This document shows positions 17,690 through 31,938 of a stretch of DNA of 32,324 bases, piece by piece. Under the pieces are notes generated by a model. It had not been told where the DNA came from, did no database searches, and saw only the letters and a list, made by a program, of their open reading frames with translations. The position numbers and the translations under genes were made by a program. Within the stretch, counting starts at the first letter, position 1. Every line of letters begins with the position of its first letter. The stretch is from NCBI GenBank assembly GCA_945862225.1, contig CAMAXG010000006.1:1-32324 (forward strand), written 5' to 3'. The DNA is from Thermoflexus hugenholtzii JAD2. Lineage in GTDB: Bacteria; Chloroflexota; Limnocylindria; Limnocylindrales; Limnocylindraceae.

Positions 17690-17759
17690 GACCACCCTCC
17701 CTACTGACAATTGGCACTGCGGTGGGGCAGCATAGCGAATGTTCTTCACGTTGAGAAGG

Positions 17760-17765
17760 TAGAAT
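17760..17765 (+). promoter_or_regulatory. Probable -10 element (TAGAAT) of the deoxyribonucleotidase-like gene
   Basis: TAGAAT lies 19 bases upstream of the GTG at 17785, with a strong GGAGGAG Shine-Dalgarno sequence in between, so this promoter would give a short-leader mRNA rather than a leaderless one. No convincing -35 is seen. It lies in a 95-base divergent promoter region; TATGCT at 17729-17734 on the minus strand may serve the opposite gene. Confidence 0.4.
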
Positions 17766-17784
17766 TCAAAAAGGAGGAGCAGCA

Positions 17785-18267
17785 GTGAAAAAGACCCTCT
17801 ACATCGACATGGACAACGTCCTGGTGGACTTCCCCTCGGGGATGGCCGCCTGCGACCCAGCGCTGCTCGAGCAGCACAAAGAGAGCCCCGACGAGATCCC
17901 TGGGATCTTCGCGCTGATGCAGCCGATGCCGGGCGCCATCGAGGCTTATCACGAGCTGAGCGAGCTCTTTGACACGTACATCCTCTCGACGGCGCCATGG
18001 GAGAACCCGAGCGCCTGGTCCGACAAGCTGGAGTGGGTGAAGCGGCACCTTGGCGCACCCGCCCACAAGCGGCTGATCCTCTCGCACAACAAGCACCTCA
18101 ATGCTGGGCACTACCTAGTAGATGACCGTTCGAAGAACGGTGCAGATGCGTTTGGGAAGGTGCCTGGTCAGGAGTGGATTCACTTTGGGCATGAGCCGTT
18201 CAGCTCGTGGGCAAAGGTTGTGGCGTACCTTAAAGAGAACGCAGCACCTCCCGAACCAGGAGCATGA
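17785..18267 (+). CDS. 5'(3')-deoxyribonucleotidase-like HAD hydrolase (NT5C family)
   Basis: A 160-residue cytoplasmic protein. HAD motif I is DMDNVL with nucleophile D8 and acid D10, followed by VDFPSGMAACDP, the cap region typical of cytosolic deoxyribonucleotidases. Motif II is LSTAPW, then KLEWVKRHLG, and motif IV is LVDDRSKNGADAF. Family members dephosphorylate deoxynucleoside monophosphates, tuning nucleotide pools. Length is slightly short but normal for bacterial members. The GTG start is fixed by a GGAGGAG ribosome binding site eight bases upstream. The secreted protein gene follows nine bases after the stop. Confidence 0.87.
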   Translation: MKKTLYIDMDNVLVDFPSGMAACDPALLEQHKESPDEIPGIFALMQPMPGAIEAYHELSELFDTYILSTAPWENPSAWSDKLEWVKRHLGAPAHKRLILSHNKHLNAGHYLVDDRSKNGADAFGKVPGQEWIHFGHEPFSSWAKVVAYLKENAAPPEPGA

Positions 18268-18276
18268 GGTAGTCAA

Positions 18277-18909
18277 ATGAAGCGCATCCGCCCACTCTTC
18301 GCAGCCAGCGTGATACTTGCCTTGGCGACACTTTTGCCCGTGGCGGTGCTCTCTGTAGAGCCAGCCGAGGCGCCTGGACCACCGCGAGATACGAGCTCGG
18401 CGGTGATCATCAATATGGGTCTTGATTCGGCTGCGGTAAATGAGATCTGCGCGCGCGTTGCGGCCGGCGAGATCGTGGAGGGGATTGCCTACGACTGCAC
18501 CGCATACATCGAGTTCCAGGAGCGGTGCGCTGATCCAGAGCGTGCATCGGTGGATTGCTTCCCAAATGCCACGCCAACTCCAGACAACTGCTGGGATTGT
18601 GAAGGCAGCACGATGACTGAAGCAGAGAAGCTTGCCGCGGCGTGCACCCCGGCAGTACTGGCGGCGAACCCGCAGCATCTTGATCTCTGCTTCCCCGAGA
18701 AGTGGGCGTGGGTATGTTTCACCGCAGACCCAGATCGAAACATCACAGAGCACTGTGAGATGTACCGACGAGACCTGGATCCGTATGGGATCTTTGCGCC
18801 GCAGCCACCACCGCCAACGCCAGGAGTACCACCGACACCTGAACCCACTGCGACACCAGACCTAACACCAGTGCCAGAGCCGGAGATTCCTGCAACAGCG
18901 ACGCCGTAG
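18277..18909 (+). CDS. Secreted Cys-rich protein with Pro/Thr-rich tail, function unknown
   Basis: A 210-residue protein. An N-terminal signal peptide (basic KRIR, hydrophobic core to about residue 25, probable cleavage near AEA) is followed by a compact acidic domain with ten cysteines, including DNCWDCEG, an even number as expected for extracellular disulfides. The last 40 residues are a low-complexity tail of Pro, Thr and Glu, such as a wall-spanning or glycosylated stalk, but there is no anchor helix after it. I do not recognise the family. GAGGTAG seven bases before the ATG is a plausible ribosome binding site, and it lies nine bases after the nucleotidase gene. Confidence 0.7.
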   Translation: MKRIRPLFAASVILALATLLPVAVLSVEPAEAPGPPRDTSSAVIINMGLDSAAVNEICARVAAGEIVEGIAYDCTAYIEFQERCADPERASVDCFPNATPTPDNCWDCEGSTMTEAEKLAAACTPAVLAANPQHLDLCFPEKWAWVCFTADPDRNITEHCEMYRRDLDPYGIFAPQPPPPTPGVPPTPEPTATPDLTPVPEPEIPATATP

Positions 18910-18926
18910 CGGCCGTGCAGCGCCTG

Positions 18927-18932
18927 TAGAAT
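18927..18932 (+). promoter_or_regulatory. Leaderless -10 element (TAGAAT) of the K+ channel gene
   Basis: TAGAAT ends seven bases before the ATG at 18940, in the 30-base gap after the secreted protein gene. No ribosome binding site is present between them. Confidence 0.62.
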
Positions 18933-18939
18933 CGCCCCT

Positions 18940-19704
18940 ATGACCCTCCGCCGCCGCTGCCATCGATTCGTAGAGAAGCACCTCCGCGCGTGGGAGCTGT
19001 TGCTAGCGTTGTTTGCCGCAGCGTCGGTATATGTGGGCGTGCGGGCGACGGAGCTCGGGGAGCCTGAGTACCTCACGAACATTGAGTGGGTCTTCACGGG
19101 CCTCTTTGTGGCGGAGTACCTGTTCCGCCTCTGGATTGCACCGAGCCGCTCTGGGTACTTCAAGAGTGCGCTGATTGATTTGGTGAGCATCTTCCCGCCA
19201 GTGAGAGGCGTGCGACTGCTGCGCCTGGTGCGACTGCTGCGCGTGGCGGAGAACATCGGTGCGGCGCTCGAGACCACGGCGATGGGTCGGCGCGCGATCG
19301 CCCTCTCGCGCATCGCCATTCTGTGGATCGCGGTCGTGGGCATTGCGGCCGTGGGGCTGTATAGCGCCGAGCTTGGGCAGAACCCGTCGATCCAGTCGGG
19401 GTTCGATGCGCTCTGGTGGGCGGTCGTCACCACCACCGTGGGATTCGGCGACATTGCCCCCGTGACCGCCGAGGGGCGCCTCGCCGCAGCGCTGCTGATG
19501 GTGCTGGGCGTAGGCTTCTTTAGCTTCTTTGTGGCCACCATCACCGCCTCACTCGCGGCCGAAACCGCCAGTGGGAGCCAGAAGCCGGCCAAGAGCGCAA
19601 CCCTGAACGCACGCTTGGCAGAACTCGACGAGGCCCTGGCCGCCAAGCGCCTCACCCGGGCCGAGCACAAGCGCCTTCGTGCCAGGCTCTTGGCACAGTT
19701 CTGA
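18940..19704 (+). CDS. Voltage-gated-type potassium channel (six-helix, Kv/KvAP-like)
   Basis: A 254-residue inner-membrane protein. Helices S1-S3 lie at about residues 18-34, 46-64 and 75-86. S4 has arginine at every third position (R89, R92, R95, R98, R101), the hallmark of a voltage sensor. S5 is about 120-141, then the pore loop with TTTVGFGD at 164-171, the K+ selectivity filter, and S6 (about 184-207). The C-terminus ends with a short helical LDEALAAKRLTRAEHKRLRARLL segment, which looks like a SHOCT-type oligomerisation tail. The start is supported by the leaderless TAGAAT. It is the last gene of normal GC before the defence island. Confidence 0.92.
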   Translation: MTLRRRCHRFVEKHLRAWELLLALFAAASVYVGVRATELGEPEYLTNIEWVFTGLFVAEYLFRLWIAPSRSGYFKSALIDLVSIFPPVRGVRLLRLVRLLRVAENIGAALETTAMGRRAIALSRIAILWIAVVGIAAVGLYSAELGQNPSIQSGFDALWWAVVTTTVGFGDIAPVTAEGRLAAALLMVLGVGFFSFFVATITASLAAETASGSQKPAKSATLNARLAELDEALAAKRLTRAEHKRLRARLLAQF

Positions 19705-19759
19705 AGTAGCTTCACCGAGTAACATCATCTAGACAAAAAACCAATGGAAGCTGACCAGA

Positions 19760-20740
19760 TTGCCAAATTCACAGATATCAGAGGTGAGCCCCTTGCAATC
19801 ACAATATCTAGACATCAACGGCTACACCACAACCCTTGGCGAAATGCGCCTTGGGGATTCTCTTGAATTCCTAGAGTCTGAGGACGGACATGCGCTTAAG
19901 GAATCAGTGAGCACAATCGTAACGTCACCGCCATTTCCGTTGCTAAGCGAAAAAGCTTATGGAAATCTAGAAGGCAAGGAATACATAGACTGGTTGTGTT
20001 CATTCGCCCAACCATTGCGAGAAATTATGAAACCAGACGGCTCCTTGTTCATTGAAATTGGTAACACCTGGGTTTCAGGCGAACCGGCAATGTCAATGGT
20101 TCCACTAAAGGCACTGATGGCCTTTGCCGAGAGCGGAAACTACACAATTTGCCAGCATTTGATTTATCACAATCCTGCTCGCCCACCAGGACCAGCATCC
20201 TGGGTCACTGCCAAACGGCTACGCCTCAAGGATGACTTCACCCATTGGTTTTGGCTGGGAAAATCAGCTGATGTAAGGGCGGACAACAGCGCTGTCCTTA
20301 AGGAATACAGTCCAGCAATGACAAGATTGCTGGATAAAAAGTTGGATACAAGCGGGACGCGACCTTCCGCGCACAAGATCAATGGTAAGAACTTTTTCAA
20401 AGATAATGGCGGTTCCATAGCAGGAAGCGTAATTTCAATTCCGAATACTGGTTGGGACAACTACCACCGCTGGTGCACAAATGAGGAAATTGCAGCGCAC
20501 CCAGCTCGTATGCCTTTTGATCTTGCGCGCTTTTTCATTGATCTGACAAGCACAACGGGAGATCTAATCTTTGACCCATTTGGCGGTAGCAACACGGTAG
20601 GTGCTGCAGCCGAGGTGCTGGCTAGGCGATGGATGACTGTTGACCTTGAATCGCAATACATCGCGGGATCACTTGGTCGTTTTGCTGATGAGTCAGGGAC
20701 ACTCCCAATCGACCTAAAAGTGTCCAGAGCAAATGGCTAG
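19760..20740 (+). CDS. DNA methyltransferase, beta-class amino-methyltransferase (probably N4-cytosine or N6-adenine)
   Basis: A protein of up to 326 residues. The catalytic motif IV is TSPPF (residues 55-59) and comes before the SAM-binding motif I, FDPFGGSNT (271-279), the order of the beta class. LGDSLEFL precedes motif IV, HPARMPFDLARFFI precedes motif I, and WMTVDLESQYI closes the fold. TSPPF with this order suggests N4-cytosine methylation, but adenine cannot be excluded. There is no separate specificity subunit in the window; the region between motifs (about 140-250) would be the target recognition part. The start is uncertain: TTG 19760, GTG 19784 or TTG 19793 are all in frame. It opens a four-gene operon and overlaps the helicase gene by eight bases. 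Its GC content is lower than that of genes to the left. Confidence 0.88.
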   Translation: MPNSQISEVSPLQSQYLDINGYTTTLGEMRLGDSLEFLESEDGHALKESVSTIVTSPPFPLLSEKAYGNLEGKEYIDWLCSFAQPLREIMKPDGSLFIEIGNTWVSGEPAMSMVPLKALMAFAESGNYTICQHLIYHNPARPPGPASWVTAKRLRLKDDFTHWFWLGKSADVRADNSAVLKEYSPAMTRLLDKKLDTSGTRPSAHKINGKNFFKDNGGSIAGSVISIPNTGWDNYHRWCTNEEIAAHPARMPFDLARFFIDLTSTTGDLIFDPFGGSNTVGAAAEVLARRWMTVDLESQYIAGSLGRFADESGTLPIDLKVSRANG

Positions 20741-21917
20741 CAAGCCCCTTCGTGACTGGCAGAACAAAGCAATAGCGGCTTGGACAGCAAACAATTTCCG
20801 CGGCATTGCGCAAGTCGTAACCGGCGGAGGAAAAACATTCTTGGCAGGGGCTGCATTCAAGCTTTTGCAAGCGAGCAAGCCTGATGCGAAGCTATTTGTC
20901 GTAGTGCCCACAATTGCCCTAGCTGACCAATGGTTTGTGGCCCTCGTTGAGGACCATAAGTACCTCCCAGACGAGATCGCAATTTGGGGAGGTGGGAACA
21001 AGATCAGCGCGGGGAAACTAATCACGATCGCGGTCACACCTACCGCTATTAAGTTAACGCCAGGGTTAAGTAACGCATTAGACATACTGCTTGTGTTTGA
21101 CGAGTGCCACCACGCCGGAGCACCAACCGTCGCGGCGATTGCATCGATTAAGTTTGGGGCAACACTCGGGCTGTCAGCTACCCCAGAGCGTCAGTACGAC
21201 GAGTCATTCAATGAGCAAATTGTTCCACTACTTGGTCCGATCATTGTCAATTATGGCTACGAAGAGGCGCTCGCAGATGGTGTTATTTGCCCATTTGAAC
21301 TTACTCACGTATTTGCCCCAATGGATGCAGTTGAAGACGAGAAGTTCAGGAAGCTTTCTCGCAATGTGGCTGTGGCCATAGGGAAATTTGGCCACGGAAG
21401 CCCTGAGGCAACTATGGCCTTGCGGGCTCGCGCGCGAATGGTTAACTCTGTTCGCAGTCGCGTGATCATCGCAATCGAACTCATCAAAAAGTACTCACAA
21501 GGGCGAACAATCGTTTTTGACGAATCAATTGAGCGCGTTGAACTTATCAAGTCTGGACTGCTAATGAATCAAATGACAGCACTTACGTACCACAGTCGAA
21601 TGTCGCCGGCAGCTGCGCGATCAAATTTGTTGATGTACAGGCGCGGCCAAGCGCAGGTACTTCTGACATGCCGCGCGCTTGACGAGGGCGCGAATATTCC
21701 AGAAACCGAAACAGGGATTATCGTCTCAAGCACTGCAAGTGAACGTCAGCGAGTGCAGCGCCTAGGGCGAGTTTTGCGGGCACTTCCAGGAAAACAGTCG
21801 GCCAGCATCTACACCATTTATTCAACAGAACAAGAGAAGCAGCGGCTGCTCAAGCCGGGCGCCGAACGCAACACGCGATGGATGACCACAGAGTTTGGAG
21901 CAAACAAGAGTGGATAA
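20733..21917 (+). CDS. DEAD/DEAH-box SF2 helicase (SSL2/type I-III restriction-like)
   Basis: A 394-residue protein with the complete SF2 motor: Walker A TGGGKT (residues 30-35), motif Ia VVVPTIALADQW, Walker B DECHH (123-127), motif III SAT (148-150), motif V ALDEGANIP (315-323) and motif VI QRLGRVLR (342-349) with its arginine finger. The arrangement resembles COG1061-type helicases that move along DNA in restriction and defence systems. It has no accessory nuclease domain; the nuclease would have to be supplied by another gene. It overlaps the methyltransferase stop (ATGGCTAG) and its own stop overlaps the start of the next gene, so translation of three genes is coupled. Confidence 0.92.
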   Translation: MASKPLRDWQNKAIAAWTANNFRGIAQVVTGGGKTFLAGAAFKLLQASKPDAKLFVVVPTIALADQWFVALVEDHKYLPDEIAIWGGGNKISAGKLITIAVTPTAIKLTPGLSNALDILLVFDECHHAGAPTVAAIASIKFGATLGLSATPERQYDESFNEQIVPLLGPIIVNYGYEEALADGVICPFELTHVFAPMDAVEDEKFRKLSRNVAVAIGKFGHGSPEATMALRARARMVNSVRSRVIIAIELIKKYSQGRTIVFDESIERVELIKSGLLMNQMTALTYHSRMSPAAARSNLLMYRRGQAQVLLTCRALDEGANIPETETGIIVSSTASERQRVQRLGRVLRALPGKQSASIYTIYSTEQEKQRLLKPGAERNTRWMTTEFGANKSG

Positions 21918-22683
21918 AGTGTTTGTGGGAGAAAGCGAATATTCCGCAGTCAGCAACCTCGGAATGCTTGAAGATCATTTCGAGCAAATCATTTACCAAC
22001 ATGCCCATCAGCTTTATCCTGGATATTACGTGGTTCCATTTGCACCACTTGTCGAATCCTTGCACGGCGCGAACCAGCCTGATATTGCCTTGGTTTCCCG
22101 CAATCTTGATTACTGGTACGTAGTAGAGGCCGAGATGGCGCACCATAGCTTGAATGGGCATGTACTGCCACAAGTCAGAACTTTTGCGCACGCGAATTAT
22201 GCCACCCGGCAAGTAATTGAAGCGCTCCAGTCTGGCCTGCCTAAGGTTGATCAACGCGATCTAATTAGACTAGTGCGCGATGTTCACCCTGAAGTGCTGG
22301 TCATCGTTTACGGCTCTGCTTCAGACTGGCGCGAGCCTTTGCTTGGCGTACCTTCCCTCCTTCATGAAATTAGGTTGTTCCGTCCGCTACAGGGCCCCCC
22401 TGTGCTGTACATGGACGGCCCAACCTTGCGTCAACCTTCCCTGCTTGCATTCAGTTGTGTTCACCGAATCGAGATGGCAAGCCTATTGTTTCTAGACGGC
22501 ACAATGGGTGACACGATTCCCAAGCGAATTGAAATTGAGGTTGAAGAAGCGATCATTCAGGCTGAAGTTCTTGACCAAGATCACCTCACAGTCCTGAGAT
22601 CCCCAGCATTTCGAGACCTAGCACCAGGCCAATACCAACTGATACAATCCGAGTCTGGTTCATTTAATCTCGGCAAGATCTAA
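21910..22683 (+). CDS. Operon protein of unknown family, possible PD-(D/E)xK-like nuclease
   Basis: A 257-residue protein read from a GTG that overlaps the helicase stop by eight bases, with GGAG nine bases upstream; an in-frame TTG at 21895 is less likely. No family is recognised with certainty. The N-terminal part reads helix (LEDHFEQIIYQH), strand (YYVVPFAPLV), an acidic turn with D58 in QPDIALV, then WYVVEAEMAHHS with E73 and E75. A helix with acidic residue, Asp, and Glu-x-(Lys/Glu) spaced about 15 residues after the Asp is the layout of PD-(D/E)xK nucleases, here with Glu in place of the usual Lys. In a methyltransferase-helicase operon that lacks another nuclease, this gene is the best candidate for the effector. 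The C-terminal half (about 130-257) is beta-rich and unassigned. Confidence 0.6.
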   Translation: MDKVFVGESEYSAVSNLGMLEDHFEQIIYQHAHQLYPGYYVVPFAPLVESLHGANQPDIALVSRNLDYWYVVEAEMAHHSLNGHVLPQVRTFAHANYATRQVIEALQSGLPKVDQRDLIRLVRDVHPEVLVIVYGSASDWREPLLGVPSLLHEIRLFRPLQGPPVLYMDGPTLRQPSLLAFSCVHRIEMASLLFLDGTMGDTIPKRIEIEVEEAIIQAEVLDQDHLTVLRSPAFRDLAPGQYQLIQSESGSFNLGKI

Positions 22684-22708
22684 GCGGATTTAGAGTTTTG
22701 GAGGGGCA

Positions 22709-24304
22709 ATGAGTAAAGTAAATATGGTAATTGAGCCTGAGTCAATCCTTACCTATAAGCGCCTAACGTATTACCCATGGACCGCCCTAGCAGAACTCAT
22801 TGACAATTCAACAACGAGCTATGCGCTGAATAAAGACGCTCTTGATGCTGCATACCGAGCAGAAGGAGCCGATGAGCGTGTCGAAGTTCGGGTGACTATT
22901 GGAGAAACTGAAGGTGAAAAGTGGGTGCGGGTAACCGACACCGCATTAGGCATGGACTTACCCACCTTGATCAATTCGCTAAAGATCGGCCGCCCACCGG
23001 TTGACACTTCCCATCGGTCGAAATACGGCATGGGCATGAAAACCGCTTCATGTTGGTTTGGCGATCGATGGACTATTACAACAAGTCGGCTTGGCGAAAA
23101 AGGCGGGCACAGAGTGACTATTGACGTCAATGCAATCGCGGCGGGTAACAACGATCTCAACTATGAATTCTTGAAAAATCACGGAGAAAACGAGCACTTC
23201 ACAATCATTGAAATCTCAAGTCTTCATCAAACCAGTCTTGCGGGACGCACTTTGGGAAGGATTAGGACCTATCTACAGGGAATCTATCGGAAAGATCTCG
23301 GGACCGAAACTCAACCTGGTGAGATTCGGCTGTATGTGAATGACGTAGCAATCAGTGGGGATGTGTTCAAAGACACGGATTTCTTGCAAGACGCCTCAGG
23401 GAATCTTTACAAGAAGCCGTTCAACAAAGAGTGGACTCGACCCGGCGGAAAACGCCAGGTTGCTCAAGGGTGGATCGGCATTCTGGAATCAGGAAGTCGC
23501 TCAAAGGCTGGGTTTTCGCTCTTTGAGTCTGGCCGAATGCTTAAAGGTCACCCCGAAGCGTGGCGCCCGCAGGGGATTTTCGGTCAGCTGCTGGGGACAA
23601 ACGACTTGATCAATCAGCGTCTAGTTGGAGAAGTAGAACTATTTGGGTTTATTCCAACCCACACCAAGGACGACGTTTCCTGGCAGGGCGACGAACAGGA
23701 TGAAGTAGAGAGCTATCTTGAGGAAGTCGCCAAAGACTATCGACAGGTAGCGCAAGCACGGCGAAAGCATTCAGATGATGAGCGAGGGCCTTCCGCAAAA
23801 GAGCGGGCCATGGCTGTATCTGAGCTTCGAACAGAGTTTGGTACCCCTGAGTTCCGTGAAGTCTTCAACGATCGTGTTCCACTTCCGCCACGCGAGTTAA
23901 TCGAAGCAGACCTTGCAACATTAAAGGCGAATCTTGCGAATCGACGCGAATGGGAAATTGAAGTACCGCTGGAGACTGTTGACGGGGAGCCGATGTTGGC
24001 GCGAGTGGGGATTGATGAAGATCTGCGAACGAACGACCCATACATCGTTTGGCAGCAATCTGCGTCAGGGAAACAAGTTGATGTGGTGATCAACTGGAAT
24101 CACCCTGCGATTGAGATGATTTCTGGCGCCGACGATTTAGTGGTCTATATGCGTCTTGCTGCATACGAAGCCTTGTCCGAGTGGCAAGCGGTGCGATTGG
24201 GCGAACGAGTCCGGCCGGATGAAATTCGTCTCATTAAAGGAAGACTGTTAGCGATTGCTTACGCTACAGAATTTCTTGCGAGGAACGAAGACCGAAACGC
24301 CTGA
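22709..24304 (+). CDS. GHKL (HATPase_c_3) ATPase, MORC/MutL-like
   Basis: A 531-residue protein with the Bergerat fold of GHKL ATPases at its N-terminus: the N-box WTALAELIDNST (E29 and N33 bind Mg-ATP), motif II DTALGMD (D77 to D83) and the lid SKYGMGMKTAS (104-114). An S5-like domain follows, then a Gln/Glu-rich helical region (about 330-420) that may dimerise, and a C-terminal region of unknown fold ending in ARNEDRNA. Motif II has Ala where the usual DxGxG has Gly, and the N-box lacks the usual Asp after NS. Prokaryotic MORC-like ATPases are known from restriction-modification-type operons. A strong GGAGG ribosome binding site lies six bases before the ATG. It is the last gene of the operon. 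Confidence 0.85.
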   Translation: MSKVNMVIEPESILTYKRLTYYPWTALAELIDNSTTSYALNKDALDAAYRAEGADERVEVRVTIGETEGEKWVRVTDTALGMDLPTLINSLKIGRPPVDTSHRSKYGMGMKTASCWFGDRWTITTSRLGEKGGHRVTIDVNAIAAGNNDLNYEFLKNHGENEHFTIIEISSLHQTSLAGRTLGRIRTYLQGIYRKDLGTETQPGEIRLYVNDVAISGDVFKDTDFLQDASGNLYKKPFNKEWTRPGGKRQVAQGWIGILESGSRSKAGFSLFESGRMLKGHPEAWRPQGIFGQLLGTNDLINQRLVGEVELFGFIPTHTKDDVSWQGDEQDEVESYLEEVAKDYRQVAQARRKHSDDERGPSAKERAMAVSELRTEFGTPEFREVFNDRVPLPPRELIEADLATLKANLANRREWEIEVPLETVDGEPMLARVGIDEDLRTNDPYIVWQQSASGKQVDVVINWNHPAIEMISGADDLVVYMRLAAYEALSEWQAVRLGERVRPDEIRLIKGRLLAIAYATEFLARNEDRNA

Positions 24305-24355
24305 TAGCGGGCACGTATCACGCAAGAGCTTTGCAGATCTATAGATAGCGCAATC

Positions 24356-26251
24356 TCAAGGCTTGATCCGTGATTCAACGAATCTCTTCGTCTCCGCGTC
24401 CGTGAACGTGACCACGCACCCATTCATACCCCTCGTCAGGAGTACCCGATACGTCTGGGCAATGAGCTGCTTGTAGAACTCAGGGTCCTTCTTATCCGCA
24501 CGCTTCACGACGGAGTCGAATGAATGCTGGGCTTGAGCGACCCATCCCTTGCCAGCTCGCCACACCAGGTCATCGCCCCAGATGACGCCAACGCGATCAA
24601 ACTCGAAGCCCTGAGCGGTATACACACAGCCAACCTGGTGGACCCCTTCTGGGTCAATCGCCCACGCATTAGAGCTCGGGATTCCAGGTGCCAAGCGACC
24701 AGCTGTTGGCTTCGCGTTCCACGGTCGCTGCCAATCGCCAACGACAACGTCGTTCACAAGCGTGCCATCCCCAAGAGGTTCACTCCACGGCCAGCAGAAA
24801 CCAGCCACGAGCCGGGAATTCTGCCCCTTCTTGAGCGACTGTTGTACTTCCCGCTCCAGTGCAGCCGGCGATTCCACAACGGAGAAGTCAAACCCAGCCT
24901 GCTCAATTTCAAGGATCTCGTCACCGTCTGTGCTGACGCCGAGGAGTCGATCCACCCAGCGCACATACGTATCGGATCCACCGCAACGGAATTGCGCTGC
25001 TAGGTCATATTCAAACACTGGTTGACCACGCTTTGCGCTTGCTTCCCGAATTAGTGCGGCACTGCCGACCTCTCCTGGTCGCACAACCTGCCGGTCGTCA
25101 ATGAAGAATGCGGCGATCTTTGCTGAATCAAGAAGCTCTTCAATTTGTGAGCCGCCACGGTCTTCCTTCTTCGTCCATTGGTTTGCGCTTGTTTCGCGGA
25201 TACGGTGTGCTTCGTCGGCAACAAGCAAATCAAATGGCTCACCCTTCTTCATGAATGAATTGAAATACTTCATGAGCTGCCCGGCGCGCGGTCCAACACG
25301 CTTGCGAAGACCCTCCGTGAACGCGCGTGAGCCAGTGGCGTGGGCAACGGTCTTCCCTTCCGCTGCAGCACTCGCCAGCAACTGCAGTGCGATCAGGCTC
25401 TTTCCTGTACCCGGCCCTCCATTAATGATGAACGTTGACGGCTTGCTCTTCTTGCCAGCGCGCTGAAGTTCATCGTGCACTGCCATATATGCCGTGACCT
25501 GTTCGTCAAGCAGCACGAATGCCTTTTCGTTAGAGATAACGGCAGCGACGTGATCCAAGAGCTTCTTGCTTGGGCGATATTCAGATGAAGAGATTTTCTC
25601 AATAAGATCAGTGCTATCCCCAGCCCCAACTTGGTCTGATAGGTGGCGTGCAAGGTCTTCAAACTGGTCTTGCGCATAAATAGGGGAGGTGCTGAGAAGT
25701 TCCTTGAACTTCGGATCGTAGAGCGGGGCTGCGCCAGACGAGGTTCGATCTAGGTTATGGAGGAATGCAAGCGAGCTAAGTCCGACGTCGCCCGATGCAA
25801 ATATTTCACTCATGTCGCGAAGGAACTGCTCATACCTGTGGACTTGGGCGCTAGGGTGCAGTGTGTCCTTCGGGCTGCCGCCGGCGAACGCTACTGCAAC
25901 GTGTTCTGTCATGGAGCTTTCATCCACATGGCTCCACTGCTTTAGTTCGATGATGATGGCGTTGTCAGCTGGTCCACCTCCGGTCGCCGAAGTGCGCTTA
26001 CCGGCAACCATCACGTCCAGCCGTTTCGAGGTGAGAGGTAGTTGAAGCTCAACAAGCACTCCCTGGGGGCCGAGCCCAGCGAGAGTAAACACGTTTGACA
26101 TCTGCTGAAGGGAGTTCCGCCAAGAGTTCAGCTCGCCTTTGTTGGCGTGGTGGCCCTTTTCAATGGCATAGGCCTCATCGATCTTGTCGGCAAGCCGATT
26201 AAGCTGGGCGTCGCGGATGAATTCCTTTACGGCGCCTTGATAGAGGTACAT
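24356..26251 (-). CDS. PD-(D/E)xK nuclease fused to DUF2075-type DNA/RNA helicase
   Basis: A 631-residue protein. The N-terminal domain (about 1-180) has a PD-(D/E)xK layout: E68 in VLVELQ, D79 in KRLDVMV, then E102-x-K104 in IIIELKQW. The C-terminal part is a DUF2075/SF1-like ATPase: Walker A GGPGTGKS (278-285), Walker B LLVADEAHR (342-350), a DDRQVVRPGE motif (sensor-like), AAQFRCGG, and later GCVYTAQGFEFDRVGVIWG and the closing YRVLLTRGMNG, which match helicase motifs V and VI. The fold and domain pairing are those of mobile-element restriction factors. It is convergent with the methyltransferase-helicase operon 52 bases away, and has its own TACGAT leaderless promoter. It could be a separate defence gene or a fifth part of the same system. 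Confidence 0.87.
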   Translation of the reverse strand: MYLYQGAVKEFIRDAQLNRLADKIDEAYAIEKGHHANKGELNSWRNSLQQMSNVFTLAGLGPQGVLVELQLPLTSKRLDVMVAGKRTSATGGGPADNAIIIELKQWSHVDESSMTEHVAVAFAGGSPKDTLHPSAQVHRYEQFLRDMSEIFASGDVGLSSLAFLHNLDRTSSGAAPLYDPKFKELLSTSPIYAQDQFEDLARHLSDQVGAGDSTDLIEKISSSEYRPSKKLLDHVAAVISNEKAFVLLDEQVTAYMAVHDELQRAGKKSKPSTFIINGGPGTGKSLIALQLLASAAAEGKTVAHATGSRAFTEGLRKRVGPRAGQLMKYFNSFMKKGEPFDLLVADEAHRIRETSANQWTKKEDRGGSQIEELLDSAKIAAFFIDDRQVVRPGEVGSAALIREASAKRGQPVFEYDLAAQFRCGGSDTYVRWVDRLLGVSTDGDEILEIEQAGFDFSVVESPAALEREVQQSLKKGQNSRLVAGFCWPWSEPLGDGTLVNDVVVGDWQRPWNAKPTAGRLAPGIPSSNAWAIDPEGVHQVGCVYTAQGFEFDRVGVIWGDDLVWRAGKGWVAQAQHSFDSVVKRADKKDPEFYKQLIAQTYRVLLTRGMNGCVVTFTDAETKRFVESRIKP

Positions 26252-26375: not shown

Positions 26376-26555
26376 ATGTCTGCCAAGCCAACTCGCCGTT
26401 CCACCCTGCTCGCGCTCGCACTGCTCATGGCTGCGGCCGTGCCGGTGCGTGCCACTACCCCGCCGACCTTTACGGTGGTCGACAGCATCTATCCAGGTGG
26501 CGATAGCTCTGGCGCCATGGTGGCTGCGTCGCCCGTGCTGAAATCCTTTCAGTAG
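26376..26555 (+). pseudogene. Truncated ELWxxDGT surface protein: signal peptide and first residues only
   Basis: An open frame of 59 residues from an ATG with an AGGAG ribosome binding site. Its first 36 or so residues are nearly the same as those of the full gene at 26629, including the identical ALLMAAAVPVRATTPPTFTV stretch, and the bases upstream are also similar. It then diverges and stops at TAG 26555, before any ELW repeat. A perfect hairpin CTGAAATCCTTTCAG (26538-26552) covers the end. It reads as the remnant of a tandem duplicate. If translated it would yield a secreted peptide of about 30 residues. Confidence 0.7.
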
Positions 26556-26589
26556 ACCGCTCTAAAGAGGCGTGCCAAAATCCACTGAC

Positions 26590-26606
26590 GCAGGCACCCC
26601 GCCTGC
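26590..26606 (+). other. Short inverted repeat in the leader of the first full ELWxxDGT gene
   Basis: GCAGGC and GCCTGC pair around the five-base loop ACCCC, 22 bases before the ATG at 26629. It is a six-base-pair stem with no T-run, so not a terminator. The truncated copy upstream has a mismatched version. It could affect mRNA stability or be an operator half-site pair; chance cannot be excluded. Confidence 0.35.
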
Positions 26607-26628
26607 CTCTATACATAGGAGTACCAAC

Positions 26629-28125
26629 ATGCCCGCCAAGAAGCTCCGCCGTTCTGCCGTGTTGGCCCTCGCACTCCTCATGGCTGCGGCCGTGCCGGTG
26701 CGTGCCACCACCCCGCCGACCTTTACTGTGGTCGATAGCATTCAGCCAGGGAGCGGCTCCTCGTACGCAATGGATGCCTCAGAGAGCGTTGCGATCGGTG
26801 ACTACCTCTATTTCACTGCCGATGACGGCACCCGCGGCTTTGAACTTTGGCGCACCAACGGCACCACGACCGAGCTCGTCTCTGATATTCGGACGGGTGG
26901 AGCCAGCAGCTACCCGTATGATTTCACTGCACTTGGGGACAATCTCTACTTCTCCGCCGAAGACGGCACCACCGGCCGAGAGCTCTGGCGCACTGATGGC
27001 ACTGAGGCAGGCACCACGCGCGTTGCCGACATTCGGAGCGGCAGTGGAGACAGTGACGTCGGCTTTTTTCGGGCGTTTGGTGGCGACCTCTATTTCACGG
27101 CCAACGATGGCACGAATGGTCATGAACTCTGGCGCACAAGCGGCACCTCAACCACGCGCGTCACTGACATCAACGTTGGTGCTGGGCACAGTTATCCATG
27201 GGAGCTCACCGCATTCGGCGGTTATCTCTACTTCACCGCCGACGATGGCACGGAAGGGAATGAGCTCTGGCGCACCGATGGCAGCACGACAACACGCGTT
27301 GCGGACATTCGCGTGGGCGCCGTTGGCAGCAACCCGTACAATTTCACCGCATTCGGCGGCCATCTTTACTTCGGCGCCGACAACGGTATCGATGGGTTTG
27401 AGCTCTGGCGCACCGACGGCAGCACGACAACACGCATCACCGACATCAATGTCGGCGCTGGTGCCAGTAGCCCACTCGGGCTCACCCCATTCGGCGAGTT
27501 CCTGTACTTCAGGGCCGACGATGGAAGCAGTGGGAATGAACTCTGGCGCACCGACGGCACGGCGCCTGGCACCACACGCGTGATGGACATCAACACCACC
27601 ACAGGTTCCAGCAACCCATGGGGCTTCACTGCGCTCAACGGCCACCTTTACTTCCAGGCAGACGATGGTATGACAGGTGGCGAACTCTGGCGCACCGATG
27701 GAAGCACCACGACGCAAGTCGACGACATCAACACCAATGGCAGTGACGGCTCATATCCGTATGTGTTCATTCCACTCGGGGACTACCTGTACTTCACCGC
27801 GAACAATGGAACAGCCTCGTATGTTTACCGAACCAACGGCACAGGAACGGAGCTCGTGCCGTTCCCAGACGCGGGACAGCGCATTAGTTGCGATTGCTAC
27901 GACTCGCACATTGTGGCTGTGGGTGGTCGGCTCTTCAGCACCGTGGAATCTGATGCAATCGGTCACGAGTTCGCGTATCTCGATGAGCCAACCTATGTGC
28001 TACCAGAGACGAATCGCGAAGGCGGCGTTGGCTCGGCGTGGACGATTGCACTCAGCGCACTGGCACTCGTAACGCTGGCGGCTGGCGTAGGCCTGCGCCG
28101 ACGCACTGGGGCTACTCAGCGCTAG
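26629..28125 (+). CDS. ELWxxDGT repeat surface protein, paralogue 1
   Basis: A 498-residue exported protein. The signal peptide has a basic start (KKLRR) and ends at VPVRA. Residues about 55-405 hold seven clear repeats plus one weak one, each about 46 residues, with the pattern GxxLYFxADDGxxGxELWRTxGT followed by xxVxDIxxG. Seven or eight blades of this length suggest a beta-propeller. A CxC motif follows (SCDCYDS), then LPETNREGG at 458-466, a hydrophobic helix (WTIALSALALVTLAAGVGL) and a basic RRR tail, so it is probably anchored by the C-terminus. The ATG at 26629 is chosen over an upstream start because an AGGAG ribosome binding site precedes it and it begins the signal peptide. Function unknown; paralogues at 28973 and 30451. 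Confidence 0.85.
   Translation: MPAKKLRRSAVLALALLMAAAVPVRATTPPTFTVVDSIQPGSGSSYAMDASESVAIGDYLYFTADDGTRGFELWRTNGTTTELVSDIRTGGASSYPYDFTALGDNLYFSAEDGTTGRELWRTDGTEAGTTRVADIRSGSGDSDVGFFRAFGGDLYFTANDGTNGHELWRTSGTSTTRVTDINVGAGHSYPWELTAFGGYLYFTADDGTEGNELWRTDGSTTTRVADIRVGAVGSNPYNFTAFGGHLYFGADNGIDGFELWRTDGSTTTRITDINVGAGASSPLGLTPFGEFLYFRADDGSSGNELWRTDGTAPGTTRVMDINTTTGSSNPWGFTALNGHLYFQADDGMTGGELWRTDGSTTTQVDDINTNGSDGSYPYVFIPLGDYLYFTANNGTASYVYRTNGTGTELVPFPDAGQRISCDCYDSHIVAVGGRLFSTVESDAIGHEFAYLDEPTYVLPETNREGGVGSAWTIALSALALVTLAAGVGLRRRTGATQR
26797..27843 (+). repeat. ELWxxDGT repeat array 1 (seven full repeats plus one degenerate)
   Basis: A coding repeat of about 135-150 bases. The word CTCTGGCGCAC, coding LWRT, recurs about every 140 bases from about 26848 (once as CTTTGGCGCAC). 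The last unit has YVYRTNG in place of ELWRTDG. Repeat number estimated by eye. Confidence 0.8.
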
Positions 28126-28130
28126 AGGCG

Positions 28131-28136
28131 TATCCT
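28131..28136 (+). promoter_or_regulatory. Leaderless -10 element (TATCCT) of the SRAP gene
   Basis: TATCCT ends seven bases before the ATG at 28144 and begins six bases after the stop of the preceding gene. No ribosome binding site lies between. Confidence 0.6.
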
Positions 28137-28143
28137 GTGCCGC

Positions 28144-28923
28144 ATGTGCGGCCGCATCGTTCAAGCAACCTCGCCGGAAGAGATCGCCCGGGAGTTCGGC
28201 GCCGATCTCAGCGTGGCGCTGCGCGAGAGCCTGAGCACGCCGGCTCCCGGCGATACGTCGTTGGTACGTGCGGGGTGGTATCCGCGCTGGAACATGGCCC
28301 CGTCGAGTCGGGCGCTCGTCATTGCTCCACATATGGGGGAGCGCGGTGAGGGGCGGCAGTTGGGGTACGGCAGCTGGGGCCTGATCCCGCACTGGCAGAA
28401 GGCACGTACCACGCGCGTATCAGGGCTCTTCAACGCTCGGGCCGAGACGGTGGCGACGCTTCCATCCTTTAGAGACGCCTTCCGCACAGGTCGCGTGCTG
28501 GTGCCGATCGACGCTTTCTATGAGTGGGAGAACCCTGAACACCTCGCCGAACTCGGGCGCCCCATTGGGAAGCGCGAGCCGAAGCAACCGTGGGCGTATC
28601 TGCCGAGCACGGGCGGGCGATTCGCCCTGGGCGGCATTGCCACCGAGCACGAGGGGGTCACCACCTTCTCCCTTATAACGACGCAGGCGAACAGCGTGGT
28701 GGGGCGCATTCACGACCGCATGCCGGTGATGCTGCGCGACGAGGCCGCACGTGCTGCCTGGCTCGACGCTGGGACGCATCTTGATGATGTTGCGGGACTC
28801 CTTGGCCCGGCACCTGAAAACTATTTAACGGCGCGCCGCGTCTCGCGCCGCGTTTCCAACGCCCGCAATGAGGGTCCTGACTGTTTGACTGAAGCTGGGG
28901 TCGAGGGCTTAGGGCTCGTGTGA
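28144..28923 (+). CDS. SRAP family protein (YedK/HMCES-type abasic-site DNA-protein crosslinker)
   Basis: A 259-residue protein starting MCGR, in which Cys2 becomes the first residue after removal of Met and forms the crosslink to abasic sites in single-stranded DNA. Other conserved residues are N50 in WNMAPSS, N97 in FNARAET, E127 in FYEWE, and H190 in RIHDRMPVML. The protein shields abasic sites at replication forks from breakage. Its position between two surface-protein paralogues and its own leaderless promoter suggest independent expression; no SOS box was recognised by eye. The last 40 residues after LLGPAPEN are a variable tail. Confidence 0.93.
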   Translation: MCGRIVQATSPEEIAREFGADLSVALRESLSTPAPGDTSLVRAGWYPRWNMAPSSRALVIAPHMGERGEGRQLGYGSWGLIPHWQKARTTRVSGLFNARAETVATLPSFRDAFRTGRVLVPIDAFYEWENPEHLAELGRPIGKREPKQPWAYLPSTGGRFALGGIATEHEGVTTFSLITTQANSVVGRIHDRMPVMLRDEAARAAWLDAGTHLDDVAGLLGPAPENYLTARRVSRRVSNARNEGPDCLTEAGVEGLGLV

Positions 28924-28972
28924 GGTTCGGGGAACGCCGCCGCTGTGTGGCACATTGATTGGAGCCCCGCCC

Positions 28973-30433
28973 ATGCCCGCCAAGCGCTCACTGACTCTTG
29001 CACTCGCCCTGCTGCTTGTTGCGGCAATTCCGGTGCGCGGAGTAACGCCGCCAACCCTTCAGCAGATCGACCTTCGGCCAATGGCCGACAGTTCGAACCC
29101 TGGCGAACTCATTTCGTTTGCGGGGAAGATCTTCTTCTCAGCGAACGATGGAACGAACGGACAAGAGCTCTGGCGAACTGACGGTGCGCCCGACGCCACC
29201 CACGTTGGAACAGAACTCGTATGCGATATCGATACCGACGCAGGTGAAAGCTCGAGCCCGTCCAACCTTATTGTTTATGGCGACCATCTCTATTTCCAGG
29301 CAACGAACGGCGATACGGAGATGTATCGAACCAACGGAGAGATCGACGGGTGCGAAGAGATGGACATCAACCCCACAGGGAGCGGTGGATTTGGTGAGGC
29401 CCGTGTTGTGGGCGACCAACTTTGGTTCAGTGCCACCAATGGCACCGACGGCGTTGAGCCATATCTGTACAACGACGTCGACGGGGGCATGGTGTACGAC
29501 ATCAACCCAACGGGTGATTCATACCCAAGTGGCTTTACCAAATTCGGCGCACAAGTCTTTTACACGGCAAACAATGGCACGGATGGTTACGAGCTATGGC
29601 GCACCAGCGAATCAGGCACAGTGTTGGCGGCCGACATCAATGAGACGCCTGGCGAAGGATCTAACCCACAAGAACTGTTTGCTTCTTCCGCGTACGACAT
29701 CCTTCTCTTTCGGGCCTACTCACCTACCGTTGGCTGGGAGCTTTTTGGGACCGACGGAGTAGACGTAGATGTTATTGACATTAACGTGGGCGTCGATAAC
29801 AGCGACCCAGGGCAGTTCACAGAGATCAACGGAACGATATATTTCACCGCCTTCACCGATGAGACCGGCAACGAGCTCTGGAGCGTTAACGATACCGATG
29901 GGTTCCAGATTGTTTCAGACATCACCCCAGGAACAAATTCGTCGAGTCCCCAGCAGCTCAGGGCAATCGGTGACTGGCTTTACTTCACCGCGCTCACCGA
30001 CGCGACCGGTCACGAACTCTGGCGCACGAACGGCACAACGACGGAAATGGTGATCGATCTTCTGCCGGGGTCAGATGGTGCGTATCCGTTTGGTTTTGTG
30101 GAGCACGACGGCGTGATCTTCTTTAGCGCAAACAATGGATCGAGCTGGACGATATTCCAGACAACCGGCACCGCCGCGAGCACAGTGGAAGCGGTAACAA
30201 CAACGGGCACGAGCCCATACGCCGGCTGTGAGTGCTACACGCCGATTGTCTTCCTGGGTGACCGCGCCTTTACGTACATGGGCAATGCCGAATACGGCTA
30301 CGAGGTCGCTTTCTTTGACCCGCTGCTTCCGAGCACGAATCGCGATGGCTCTGGGCTGCCGTTGATGTTGATCATGGGGGCGGCCCTCACCGCTGCCGCT
30401 TCACTTTCGCTGCGACTGCGCACAAATCGATAG
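28973..30433 (+). CDS. ELWxxDGT repeat surface protein, paralogue 2 (more divergent)
   Basis: A 486-residue exported protein with a signal peptide (KRSLTLALALLLVAAIPVRG). The repeats are present but worn: ELWRTDG, EMYRTNG, EPYLYND, ELWRTSE, ELFGTDG, ELWSVND, ELWRTNG, again about eight units of about 46 residues. The CxC motif (GCECYTP) precedes LPSTNRDGSG at 452-461, a hydrophobic helix and a basic tail ending LRTNR. GGAG eight bases before the ATG marks the start; an in-frame ATT 18 bases upstream is not used. Its first residues are almost the same as those of paralogue 3 (MPAKRSLTLALALLLVAAIP), so these two are close duplicates at the signal peptide, whereas the rest has drifted. Confidence 0.85.
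   Translation: MPAKRSLTLALALLLVAAIPVRGVTPPTLQQIDLRPMADSSNPGELISFAGKIFFSANDGTNGQELWRTDGAPDATHVGTELVCDIDTDAGESSSPSNLIVYGDHLYFQATNGDTEMYRTNGEIDGCEEMDINPTGSGGFGEARVVGDQLWFSATNGTDGVEPYLYNDVDGGMVYDINPTGDSYPSGFTKFGAQVFYTANNGTDGYELWRTSESGTVLAADINETPGEGSNPQELFASSAYDILLFRAYSPTVGWELFGTDGVDVDVIDINVGVDNSDPGQFTEINGTIYFTAFTDETGNELWSVNDTDGFQIVSDITPGTNSSSPQQLRAIGDWLYFTALTDATGHELWRTNGTTTEMVIDLLPGSDGAYPFGFVEHDGVIFFSANNGSSWTIFQTTGTAASTVEAVTTTGTSPYAGCECYTPIVFLGDRAFTYMGNAEYGYEVAFFDPLLPSTNRDGSGLPLMLIMGAALTAAASLSLRLRTNR
29125..30165 (+). repeat. ELWxxDGT repeat array 2 (about eight units, several degenerate)
   Basis: Units of about 140 bases; only three keep a perfect ELWRT, the others have EMYRT, EPYLY, ELFGT, ELWSV or IFQTT at the same place. 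Boundaries by eye. Confidence 0.7.
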
Positions 30434-30450
30434 GCAGTAGGAGAAACACG

Positions 30451-31938
30451 ATGCCCGCCAAGCGCTCACTGACCCTTGCCCTCGCCTTGCTGCTCGTTGC
30501 GGCGATTCCAGCGCGCGGCGCTAGCTTCCCGGCAATTACGGTGGTTGACACGATTCGGCCGGGGGTCGATAGCTCGATGGCGCTTTGGGGTAAGGGCCGC
30601 CTTGGTGATTATTTGTATTTTGGCGCAGACGACGGCGTGAATGGCTACGAACTCTGGCGCACAAACGGCACCAGCACAACCATGGTTGCCGACATCAATC
30701 TGGCATTTGGCTCTGCATCAAGCCCGTATGGATTCACCGCCTTTGGCGAGTGGCTCTACTTCGCAGCTGCCGACGCCACTGAAGGAAGCGAACTCTGGCG
30801 CACGAACGGCACGACCACGGTGCTCTTTGCCGACATCAACACAACGGGGGGAACGGGCAGCTCCGACCCAGGCGACTTCACCGCCCTTGGCGACTGGCTC
30901 TACTTCAGCGCCACTCAGGGGGACGGAGACCGCGAACTCTGGCGCACGAACGGCACGACCACGAACCGCGTGTCTGATATTCGACCTGGGAACGACAGCT
31001 CCAATCCGGAATACCTTACCGCCCTCGGCGACTGGCTCTACTTTGCCGCTGACAACGGAACGATCGGTAACGAACTCTGGCGCACAAATGGCACGACCAC
31101 CGAGATCGTTGAAAACATCAACACTTCCGACAGCGGCGCAAGTAGCTCCTACCCAAACAATCTCACTGCCCTTGGAGACTGGCTCTACTTCCGCGCCGAT
31201 GACGGTTTGATCGGCAGCGAACTCTGGCGCACAAACGGCACGACCACTGAGATCGTTGAAGACATCAACACTCTGGCCTCCGGAGGCTCCGATGCATACG
31301 ACTTCACCGCCTTCGGGGGGTACCTCTACTTTCAAGCAAACGACGTTACGCATGGCAGCGAACTCTGGCGCACAAACGGCACAGCCACCGAACTGGTGGA
31401 AGATATGAATACTTCCGACAGCGGCGCTGGTGGCTCCTATCCATACGACTTCACCACCCTTGGTGATTGGCTCTACTTCCGCGCCGATGACGGTTTGGTC
31501 GGCAGCGAACTCTGGCGCACCAACGGTACGAGTACGAACCGTGTCGCCGACATCAACAGCGGCGTCGATAGCTCATACCCGCGTCACTTCACCACCTTCG
31601 GCGACTATCTGCACTTCACCGCCAATGACGGCACCGATATCGGCAAGACTTGGCGTGTGAACGCCGCAGGCGTGGTTGAGTCGTTGGTACTCCCGGGCAC
31701 CAACGCCTACATCGATTGCATGTGTGACAACGCGTATACGGCGCTTGGTGGGCGACTCTTCGCGGCTTTCAGCTCCAACGAAACCGGCAACGAGATCGCC
31801 TACTTTGACGATCCCAACGTCGGACTTCCCGAAACGAGCCGTGACGGTTCGGCATGGAGCGTGACGTTGGCGCTGCTCGCAGCACTCACAGCAGCAGTTG
31901 GCGTAGGTCTGCGCAGCAAGAGGGCCCAGTACCGCTAA
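30451..31938 (+). CDS. ELWxxDGT repeat surface protein, paralogue 3
   Basis: A 495-residue exported protein. The signal peptide matches paralogue 2 almost exactly, then PARGA. Seven strong repeats plus a last weak one (KTWRVNA) follow, with GDWLYFxADxGxxGxELWRTNGT highly regular. Some neighbouring repeats are nearly the same at the DNA level (those near 31190 and 31480 both read RADDGL(I/V)GSELWRTNGT), suggesting recent repeat amplification or gene conversion. The CxC motif (DCMCDNA) precedes LPETSRDGSAW at 459-469, a hydrophobic helix and a basic tail (RSKRAQYR). AGGAG is nine bases before the ATG. It may be co-transcribed with paralogue 2, whose stop is 17 bases upstream. Confidence 0.87.
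   Translation: MPAKRSLTLALALLLVAAIPARGASFPAITVVDTIRPGVDSSMALWGKGRLGDYLYFGADDGVNGYELWRTNGTSTTMVADINLAFGSASSPYGFTAFGEWLYFAAADATEGSELWRTNGTTTVLFADINTTGGTGSSDPGDFTALGDWLYFSATQGDGDRELWRTNGTTTNRVSDIRPGNDSSNPEYLTALGDWLYFAADNGTIGNELWRTNGTTTEIVENINTSDSGASSSYPNNLTALGDWLYFRADDGLIGSELWRTNGTTTEIVEDINTLASGGSDAYDFTAFGGYLYFQANDVTHGSELWRTNGTATELVEDMNTSDSGAGGSYPYDFTTLGDWLYFRADDGLVGSELWRTNGTSTNRVADINSGVDSSYPRHFTTFGDYLHFTANDGTDIGKTWRVNAAGVVESLVLPGTNAYIDCMCDNAYTALGGRLFAAFSSNETGNEIAYFDDPNVGLPETSRDGSAWSVTLALLAALTAAVGVGLRSKRAQYR
30604..31655 (+). repeat. ELWxxDGT repeat array 3 (seven full repeats plus one degenerate)
   Basis: Units of about 140-150 bases, each with GAACTCTGGCGCAC. The units near 31180-31260 and 31470-31540 are almost the same over tens of bases. 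Count by eye. Confidence 0.8.

What the first reader, a model, noticed from the sequence alone, without database searches (positions are those of the whole stretch)
26376..31938. Family of ELWxxDGT repeat proteins ending in LPxT(N/S)R(D/E)G, helix and basic tail
All three full paralogues end in LPETNREGG, LPSTNRDGSG or LPETSRDGSA, at nearly the same distance (about 35-41 residues) from the end, then a hydrophobic helix and an Arg/Lys tail. This tripartite layout is that of sortase substrates, but the fifth position is Asn/Ser followed by Arg, not Gly. The repeats around it have drifted far more than the tail motif in paralogue 2, so the tail seems under selection. No sortase is in the window. 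This may be a non-canonical wall-sorting or rhomboid/exosortase-like signal.
Basis: partly seen in the sequence, partly recalled or inferred. Interest (0 to 1): 0.65.

Follow-up and report, generated by a model that had tools for sequence, protein, structure and literature searches.

The report
Sorting tails with putative serine sortases
Secreted proteins of a freshwater Chloroflexota bacterium carry real sortase-type anchoring tails (LPxTN-R-D/E-G), and the only candidate enzyme in the genome is an overlooked sortase whose normally essential cysteine is replaced by serine, a swap kept through its whole bacterial class; this is unusual because sortases are known as cysteine enzymes.

Summary
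Three ELWxxDGT paralogues end in LPxT[N/S]R[D/E]G, a hydrophobic helix and a basic tail. The tail is not confined to duplicates: with LPxT[N/S/D] as its core, it ends proteins of nine mutually unrelated families (BspA-LRR, C-type lectin, LamG-fn3 and others) in seven same-genus genomes (Ca. Aquidulcis/Limnocylindraceae, Chloroflexota). In one orthologue pair the body is 90% identical, but the helix and tail have been exchanged and the motif kept.

Pfam's sortase and exosortase models find no enzyme in the genus. A profile built from sister-family sortases does find one, in this genome (G000:C3) and in every tail-bearing genome. It has the sortase His, but the TLxTC cysteine is Ser (LQTS). All Limnocylindria members of this sortase group have Ser; those sampled outside the class have Cys, one Ser clade fits, and both Ser codon families are used. 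In the sister family, 8 of 8 loci of one Ser-sortase subgroup lie next to a secreted protein ending LPxT[S/D].

Best reading: a Ser-substituted sortase lineage processes LPxT[N/S/D] tails. Tail recognition is well supported. Catalysis by Ser, and the pairing of this particular enzyme with these tails, are inferred; co-occurrence within the genus amounts to about one evolutionary event.

The parts
26629..28125 (+). ELWxxDGT paralogue 1 (frame open from GTG 26572; likely start ATG 26629, MPAKKLRRSAVLALALLMAAAVPVRA signal peptide)
   Evidence: TIGR04534 E 2.7e-120; translation
28000..28122 (+). C-terminal sorting-type tail of paralogue 1: LPETNREGG, helix, RRRTGATQR
   Evidence: matches tail profile E 6.7e-15
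28973..30433 (+). ELWxxDGT paralogue 2 (frame open from TTG 28955; likely start ATG 28973)
   Evidence: TIGR04534 E 2.6e-68
30326..30430 (+). C-terminal tail of paralogue 2: LPSTNRDGSG, helix, RLRTNR
   Evidence: tail profile E 1.3e-17; orthologue in G006 has a 90% identical body but a different helix and tail with the motif kept
30451..31938 (+). ELWxxDGT paralogue 3
   Evidence: TIGR04534 E 2.1e-99
31825..31935 (+). C-terminal tail of paralogue 3: LPETSRDGSA, helix, RSKRAQYR
   Evidence: tail profile E 1.8e-18

Best explanation
The tail is a functional C-terminal sorting signal whose core is LPxT[N/S/D], usually followed by R[D/E]G, then a membrane helix and a basic stop-transfer tail. Proteins are exported by signal peptide, halt in the membrane by the helix, and are recognised at LPxT. 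They are then most likely cleaved after Thr and transferred to a cell-surface nucleophile by the genome's only sortase homologue found (G000:C3:14130-14921). In that homologue, as in the whole Limnocylindria group of this sortase, Ser stands where sortases have the catalytic Cys. Shown: the tail, its spread over unrelated proteins, the enzyme's homology, the Cys-to-Ser position, its class-wide conservation, and operonic pairing of one Ser-sortase subgroup with LPxT[S/D]-tailed proteins in the sister family. Inferred: that Ser acts as nucleophile with the conserved His, that cleavage follows Thr, that the enzyme in the window's genome (a different subgroup, with Lys in place of Arg) acts on these tails, and the identity of the acceptor.
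For: The tail ends proteins of nine families with no detectable similarity outside it. LP and T are invariant by selection of the set, but position 5 is N/S/D in 28 of 28 with no Gly although Gly was allowed. The motif is kept when the rest of the tail is exchanged. A sortase profile finds one homologue in this genome (E 3.5e-16) and in all 7 tail-bearing genomes, and no tail-bearing genome lacks it. hhalign of the genus family alone against Cys sortases gives 95.9% probability, E 6e-9, with His on His and Ser on the Cys column; hmmsearch against PDB sortases with the genus plus sister-family profile gives E 1e-6 with the same Cys/Ser alignment. Same-class members of the group are Ser; sequences sampled outside the class are Cys. 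One Ser clade is allowed (AU p 0.69). Ser is encoded by both TCN and AGC within two subgroups. 8 of 8 type-1 Ser-sortase loci in the sister family lie beside a secreted protein ending LPxT[S/D], and that tail profile hits strongly only those 8 of 42 genomes. Six of seven type-1 enzymes hold no Cys at all.
Against: No natural Ser sortase is known to me. SrtA C184A is inactive and C184S has been used as a cysteine-less form (PMC5578623), so a dead enzyme is possible. The third catalytic residue (Arg) is Lys in the window's genus and Glu in family f3. In the window's genome the enzyme is not beside any tail gene. Co-occurrence within the genus is close to one evolutionary event: tail- and enzyme-bearing genomes form one group on the single-gene tree, with weak basal support. 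Three enzyme-bearing genomes show no tail, though they are only 60-82% complete. Close relatives of this subgroup in the sister family (type-2) show no tails nearby. One Cys sortase outside the class also sits beside an LPNTS tail, so the change at position 5 is not strictly tied to Cys-to-Ser.
Confidence: 0.5

Rival explanations
1. The tail is a true sorting signal, but the Ser sortase homologue is a non-catalytic binding protein (pseudo-sortase) that holds or guides LPxT proteins. The tails then act as plain membrane anchors, or are cut by another enzyme.
For: Cys is the nucleophile in studied sortases, and Cys-less SrtA is inactive but still binds its peptide. The Arg is replaced by Lys or Glu in several subgroups.
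Against: His and Ser are kept across 55 distinct sequences. Ser is kept through TCN/AGC codon switches. Type-1 enzymes keep His and Arg and sit in the place of a dedicated sortase next to a tailed protein. A dead site would be expected to drift to Ala, Gly or Thr in some lineages.
Confidence: 0.27
2. The tails are processed by an unrelated protease or transpeptidase (rhomboid, CAAX/myxosortase-like, or unknown); the sortase homologue has other substrates.
For: The enzyme gene is not linked to tail genes in the genus. Type-2 relatives occur in many sister-family genomes without detectable tails. Conserved helix residues (A-LT--AG) could be read inside the membrane.
Against: LPxT is the sortase signature. 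Every tail-bearing genome has the sortase homologue. No exosortase was found in 19 genus genomes. Related Ser sortases are operonic with LPxT[S/D] tails.
Confidence: 0.13
3. The tail is only a membrane anchor spread by gene conversion and domain shuffling; the LPxTNR motif is inherited along with it and not read by any enzyme (relict of a lost sortase system).
For: Helix sequences are similar between proteins (46% mean column identity), so common descent of the tail is likely. The genomes are reduced and have lost many genes (PMC13212565).
Against: LPxT[N/S/D] is kept when helix and tail are exchanged (body 90% identical, tail 54%) and in the most diverged tails (LPPTNTAW, LPATDGDAG, LPSTNGNS). 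Same-genus genomes lacking the enzyme show no such tails.
Confidence: 0.1

Closest known systems
Sortases (MEROPS C60, PF04203), especially classes C, D and E
   Same: N-terminal membrane anchor, sortase domain, conserved His; profile homology to solved sortases; operonic pairing with LPxT-tailed secreted proteins in the sister family
   Different: Ser replaces the catalytic Cys throughout the class group; Arg replaced by Lys in the window's genus; no Pfam or NCBIfam sortase match for the window genome's own protein; sister-family members score below the class cut-offs in NCBIfam
LPXTG cell-wall sorting signal (PF00746) and variants NPXTN (class B), LPXTA (class D), LAXTG (class E)
   Same: Pentapeptide, hydrophobic helix, basic tail; variation at position 5 is known (class B NPXTN, class D LPXTA; PMC5148588)
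   Different: LP kept as in class A, but Asn/Ser/Asp at position 5, usually followed by R[D/E]G; no match in the window's genome reaches the PF00746 cut-off
Exosortase/archaeosortase systems (PF09721)
   Same: Tripartite C-terminal signal on many unrelated secreted proteins
   Different: No exosortase in any of 19 genus genomes at E up to 1; motif is LPxT, not PEP or similar
ELWxxDGT repeat proteins (TIGR04534)
   Same: The window's three proteins are clear members
   Different: Nothing unusual except the tail

Membership tests
Sortase family (PF04203 / C60) | Homology to the sortase domain | tested here: met
   A2 profile E 3.5e-16; hhalign of genus alignment against Cys sortases, 95.9% probability, E 6.3e-9; PDB sortases E 1.2e-6. 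Below detection with PF04203 alone
Sortase family (PF04203 / C60) | Catalytic His | tested here: met
   FIYAH, invariant in all aligned members
Sortase family (PF04203 / C60) | Catalytic Cys in TLxTC | tested here: not met
   LQTS in all genus members and nearly all class members; Cys in those sampled outside the class
Sortase family (PF04203 / C60) | Catalytic Arg after the Cys | tested here: not met
   Lys at +9 in the genus and type-2; Arg in type-1, f4 and f5; Glu in f3
Sortase family (PF04203 / C60) | Cleavage and transpeptidation at LPxT | not testable with these tools
   Needs biochemistry
LPXTG-type sorting signal | LPxT pentapeptide, hydrophobic helix, basic tail at the C-terminus of secreted proteins | tested here: met
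   28 distinct tails in nine families
LPXTG-type sorting signal | Gly at position 5 | tested here: not met
   N 23, S 4, D 1, G 0 of 28, in a scan that allowed Gly
Exosortase system | Exosortase/archaeosortase enzyme in the genome | tested here: not met
   PF09721 0 of 19 genus genomes
ELWxxDGT repeat protein (TIGR04534) | Score over the curated cut-off | tested here: met
   226-392 bits against a cut-off of 65

The most novel reading that the evidence does not exclude
The class Limnocylindria uses natural serine sortases: a single ancient Cys-to-Ser change produced a lineage of transpeptidases that form an oxyester rather than a thioester intermediate and act on LPxT[N/S/D] signals.
Probability: 0.42. 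Interest if true: 0.82.

Novelty: new variant of a known kind. Interest (0 to 1): 0.64.

Why it matters
Sortases are textbook cysteine transpeptidases. A whole bacterial class that has kept Ser at the nucleophile position, with LPxT[S/D]-tailed proteins encoded beside one subgroup of the enzymes, would either be the first natural serine sortase lineage or a class-wide pseudo-sortase that still goes with sorting signals. Either is directly testable with one purified domain and short peptides. It also means that surface-protein anchoring in abundant freshwater Chloroflexota is missed by standard annotation.

Tried and rejected
Standard sortase in the genus: PF04203 found none in 19 genomes, which first looked like absence; a profile from sister-family sortases overturned that. 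Exosortase: rejected. Chance motif: rejected by control pattern and spread. The single hit in G032 is an internal site in a Mur-ligase-like enzyme and a false match. Incomplete genomes as the reason for a missing enzyme: in G009 the flanking S58 peptidase and TrmH genes are adjacent with neither the sortase homologue nor the acyltransferase gene between them, and no remnant was found by tblastn. A relocated Cys nucleophile: unlikely, because type-1 enzymes have essentially no Cys, and the two conserved Cys of type-2 and genus proteins lie near the N-side of the domain and at the very C-terminus, the layout of a disulfide. Strict coupling of Ser enzyme with non-Gly position 5: not upheld, one Cys sortase (G226) is next to LPNTS. 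AlphaFold2 on nine close sequences gave mean pLDDT 47 and was discarded. Literature searches for a Ser sortase found nothing relevant.

Full report
THE OBSERVATION. The three ORFs are real, are ELWxxDGT repeat proteins and end as described. The first paralogue probably starts at ATG 26629, the second at 28973. Tail starts lie 41, 35 and 37 residues from the ends. In the whole 1.11-Mb genome the DNA pattern for LPxT[N/S]R[D/E]G occurs four times and the reversed control never. The fourth copy ends a 465-residue secreted protein unrelated to ELWxxDGT proteins.

SPREAD OF THE TAIL. The same pattern search over 60 relatives found true tails only in same-genus genomes G001, G002, G006, G010 and G014. 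A tail profile widened the set. I collected 28 distinct tails (a few are partial or duplicate copies of one gene). With the tail removed, the proteins fall into nine families without detectable similarity to each other: ELWxxDGT propellers, BspA-type LRR (LRR_5), C-type lectin, LamG with fn3, and others without a Pfam name. LP and T are fixed by the way the set was selected, but position 5 was left open to N/S/D/G and is N 23, S 4, D 1, G 0. R at position 6 is 24 of 28. In the own genome there are six such proteins: three in the window, two on contig 23, one on contig 13 (LPSTNGNS). The orthologue of paralogue 2 in G006 has a 90% identical body, but helix and tail are only 54% identical while LPxTNRDG is unchanged. 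This is the clearest sign that the motif itself is selected.

ORGANISM. These are Candidatus Aquidulcis, class Limnocylindria, Chloroflexota. That f2 equals CSP1-4 is inferred. Chloroflexi are argued to be monoderm (PMC6169038).

THE ENZYME. PF04203 finds no sortase in 19 same-genus genomes but does in 35 of 42 sister-family genomes. An alignment of seven sister-family sortases (A2) finds a homologue in this genome (G000:C3:14451-14864, E 3.5e-16) and in nine other genus genomes. All seven tail-bearing genomes (G000, 1, 2, 6, 10, 11, 14) have it; three have it without a detected tail (G007, G012, G018; 60-82% complete); nine have neither; none has a tail without it. The simple Fisher probability, worked out by hand, is about 0.002. 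On a single-gene tree the tail- and enzyme-bearing genomes group together (94/100 for G010 with the main clade), so this is roughly one evolutionary event and not independent proof. In G009 the flanking genes are adjacent without it, so absence there is not an assembly gap. The protein (263 aa) has a single N-terminal helix and a Pro-rich linker, then the sortase domain. It has no Pfam or NCBIfam sortase match of its own.

SER FOR CYS. The sortase signature TLxTC reads VLQTS here, Ser in 10 of 10 genus sequences. Alignment to solved sortases and to other Chloroflexota sortases puts this Ser on the catalytic Cys column and its His on the catalytic His. I read the column in about 100 sequences. 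Members of this group from five families of the class have Ser. Sequences sampled outside the class have Cys. A few separate Cys-type sortases exist in the sister family too (L005, L018, L024, L246). Parsimony gives two changes on the quick tree; a tree holding all Ser sequences together is not rejected (AU p 0.69) and even has the higher likelihood. Ser is encoded by TCN and AGC codons within family f3 and within type-2. Moving between those codon sets needs two changes, so Ser itself appears to be held by selection. At +9, Arg is kept in type-1 and f4/f5, is Lys in type-2 and the genus, and Glu in f3. Six of seven type-1 enzymes have no Cys anywhere, so no other Cys can act as nucleophile there.

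LINKED SUBSTRATES. At all eight type-1 loci of the sister family the neighbouring gene, on the same strand, encodes a small secreted protein (Big_1-like where tested) ending in LPxT[S/D], a helix and basic residues: LPRTD once, LPRTS twice, LPSTS three times, LPNTS twice. Measured gaps or overlaps to the sortase gene at seven of them are 22-155 bases. A profile of these tails gives strong hits (E below 1e-13) in exactly those eight of 42 genomes. Among 20 neighbourhoods of Cys sortases outside the class, two had a linked tail: LPNTG and LPNTS. Loss of Gly at position 5 is therefore not strictly coupled to Cys-to-Ser.

HOW IT MOST LIKELY WORKS. Export by signal peptide, stop in the membrane at the helix, recognition of LPxT[N/S/D] by the membrane-bound sortase domain, cleavage after Thr and transfer to a surface amine. 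Position 5 is known to vary between sortase classes (NPXTN for class B, LPXTA for class D; PMC5148588), so LPxTN is not strange as a signal. What is strange is the Ser. Catalysis by Ser is unproven; Cys-less SrtA is inactive yet still binds its signal (PMC5578623), so a pseudo-sortase is the main rival. The link between the genus enzyme (type-2-like, His-Ser-Lys) and the tails rests on co-occurrence, on it being the only sortase homologue found, and on LPxT being a sortase signature; type-2 enzymes of the sister family have no known substrates.

LIMITS. Genomes are incomplete assemblies. Structure prediction failed for want of a deep permitted alignment. The paper library is partial, so 'no report of a Ser sortase' is a weak statement.

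Noticed in passing
window 16173-26251: Lower-GC stretch (50-57%) with an N6/N4 DNA methylase, a PbeA-like helicase, a GHKL-type ATPase protein, a Schlafen group 3 helicase and a trypsin-PDZ protein resembling the RT-protease defence family: looks like a defence island next to the ELWxxDGT cluster.
   Followed up: partly
window 28144-28923: A SRAP (HMCES-like) gene sits between ELWxxDGT paralogues 1 and 2, also in G006.
   Followed up: no
L071:2979-4562, L075:5294-6877, L073:2504-3711: A secreted protein gene family, tentatively a zinc carboxypeptidase (not tested), follows the ELWxxDGT genes in several relatives (G006, G014, G002; likely G001) but is missing in the window, where an MsrA gene follows directly.
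   Followed up: no
L100:8131-8922 and type-2 relatives: Two further Cys (FP[WLY]C before the domain core and near the last residues of the protein) are kept in genus and type-2 Ser sortases: probably a disulfide.
   Followed up: partly
L207-L213 (family f3): Ser sortase subgroup with Glu at the Arg position (SQGxNRNxGE), a further departure from the sortase triad.
   Followed up: no
L101:5751-7760 and orthologues: An acyltransferase (OafA-like) gene follows the Ser sortase directly in most genus genomes, but not in the window's genome; possible acceptor-modifying partner.
   Followed up: no
G022, G040, G051, G054, G056: True exosortases occur in a few sister-family genomes.
   Followed up: no
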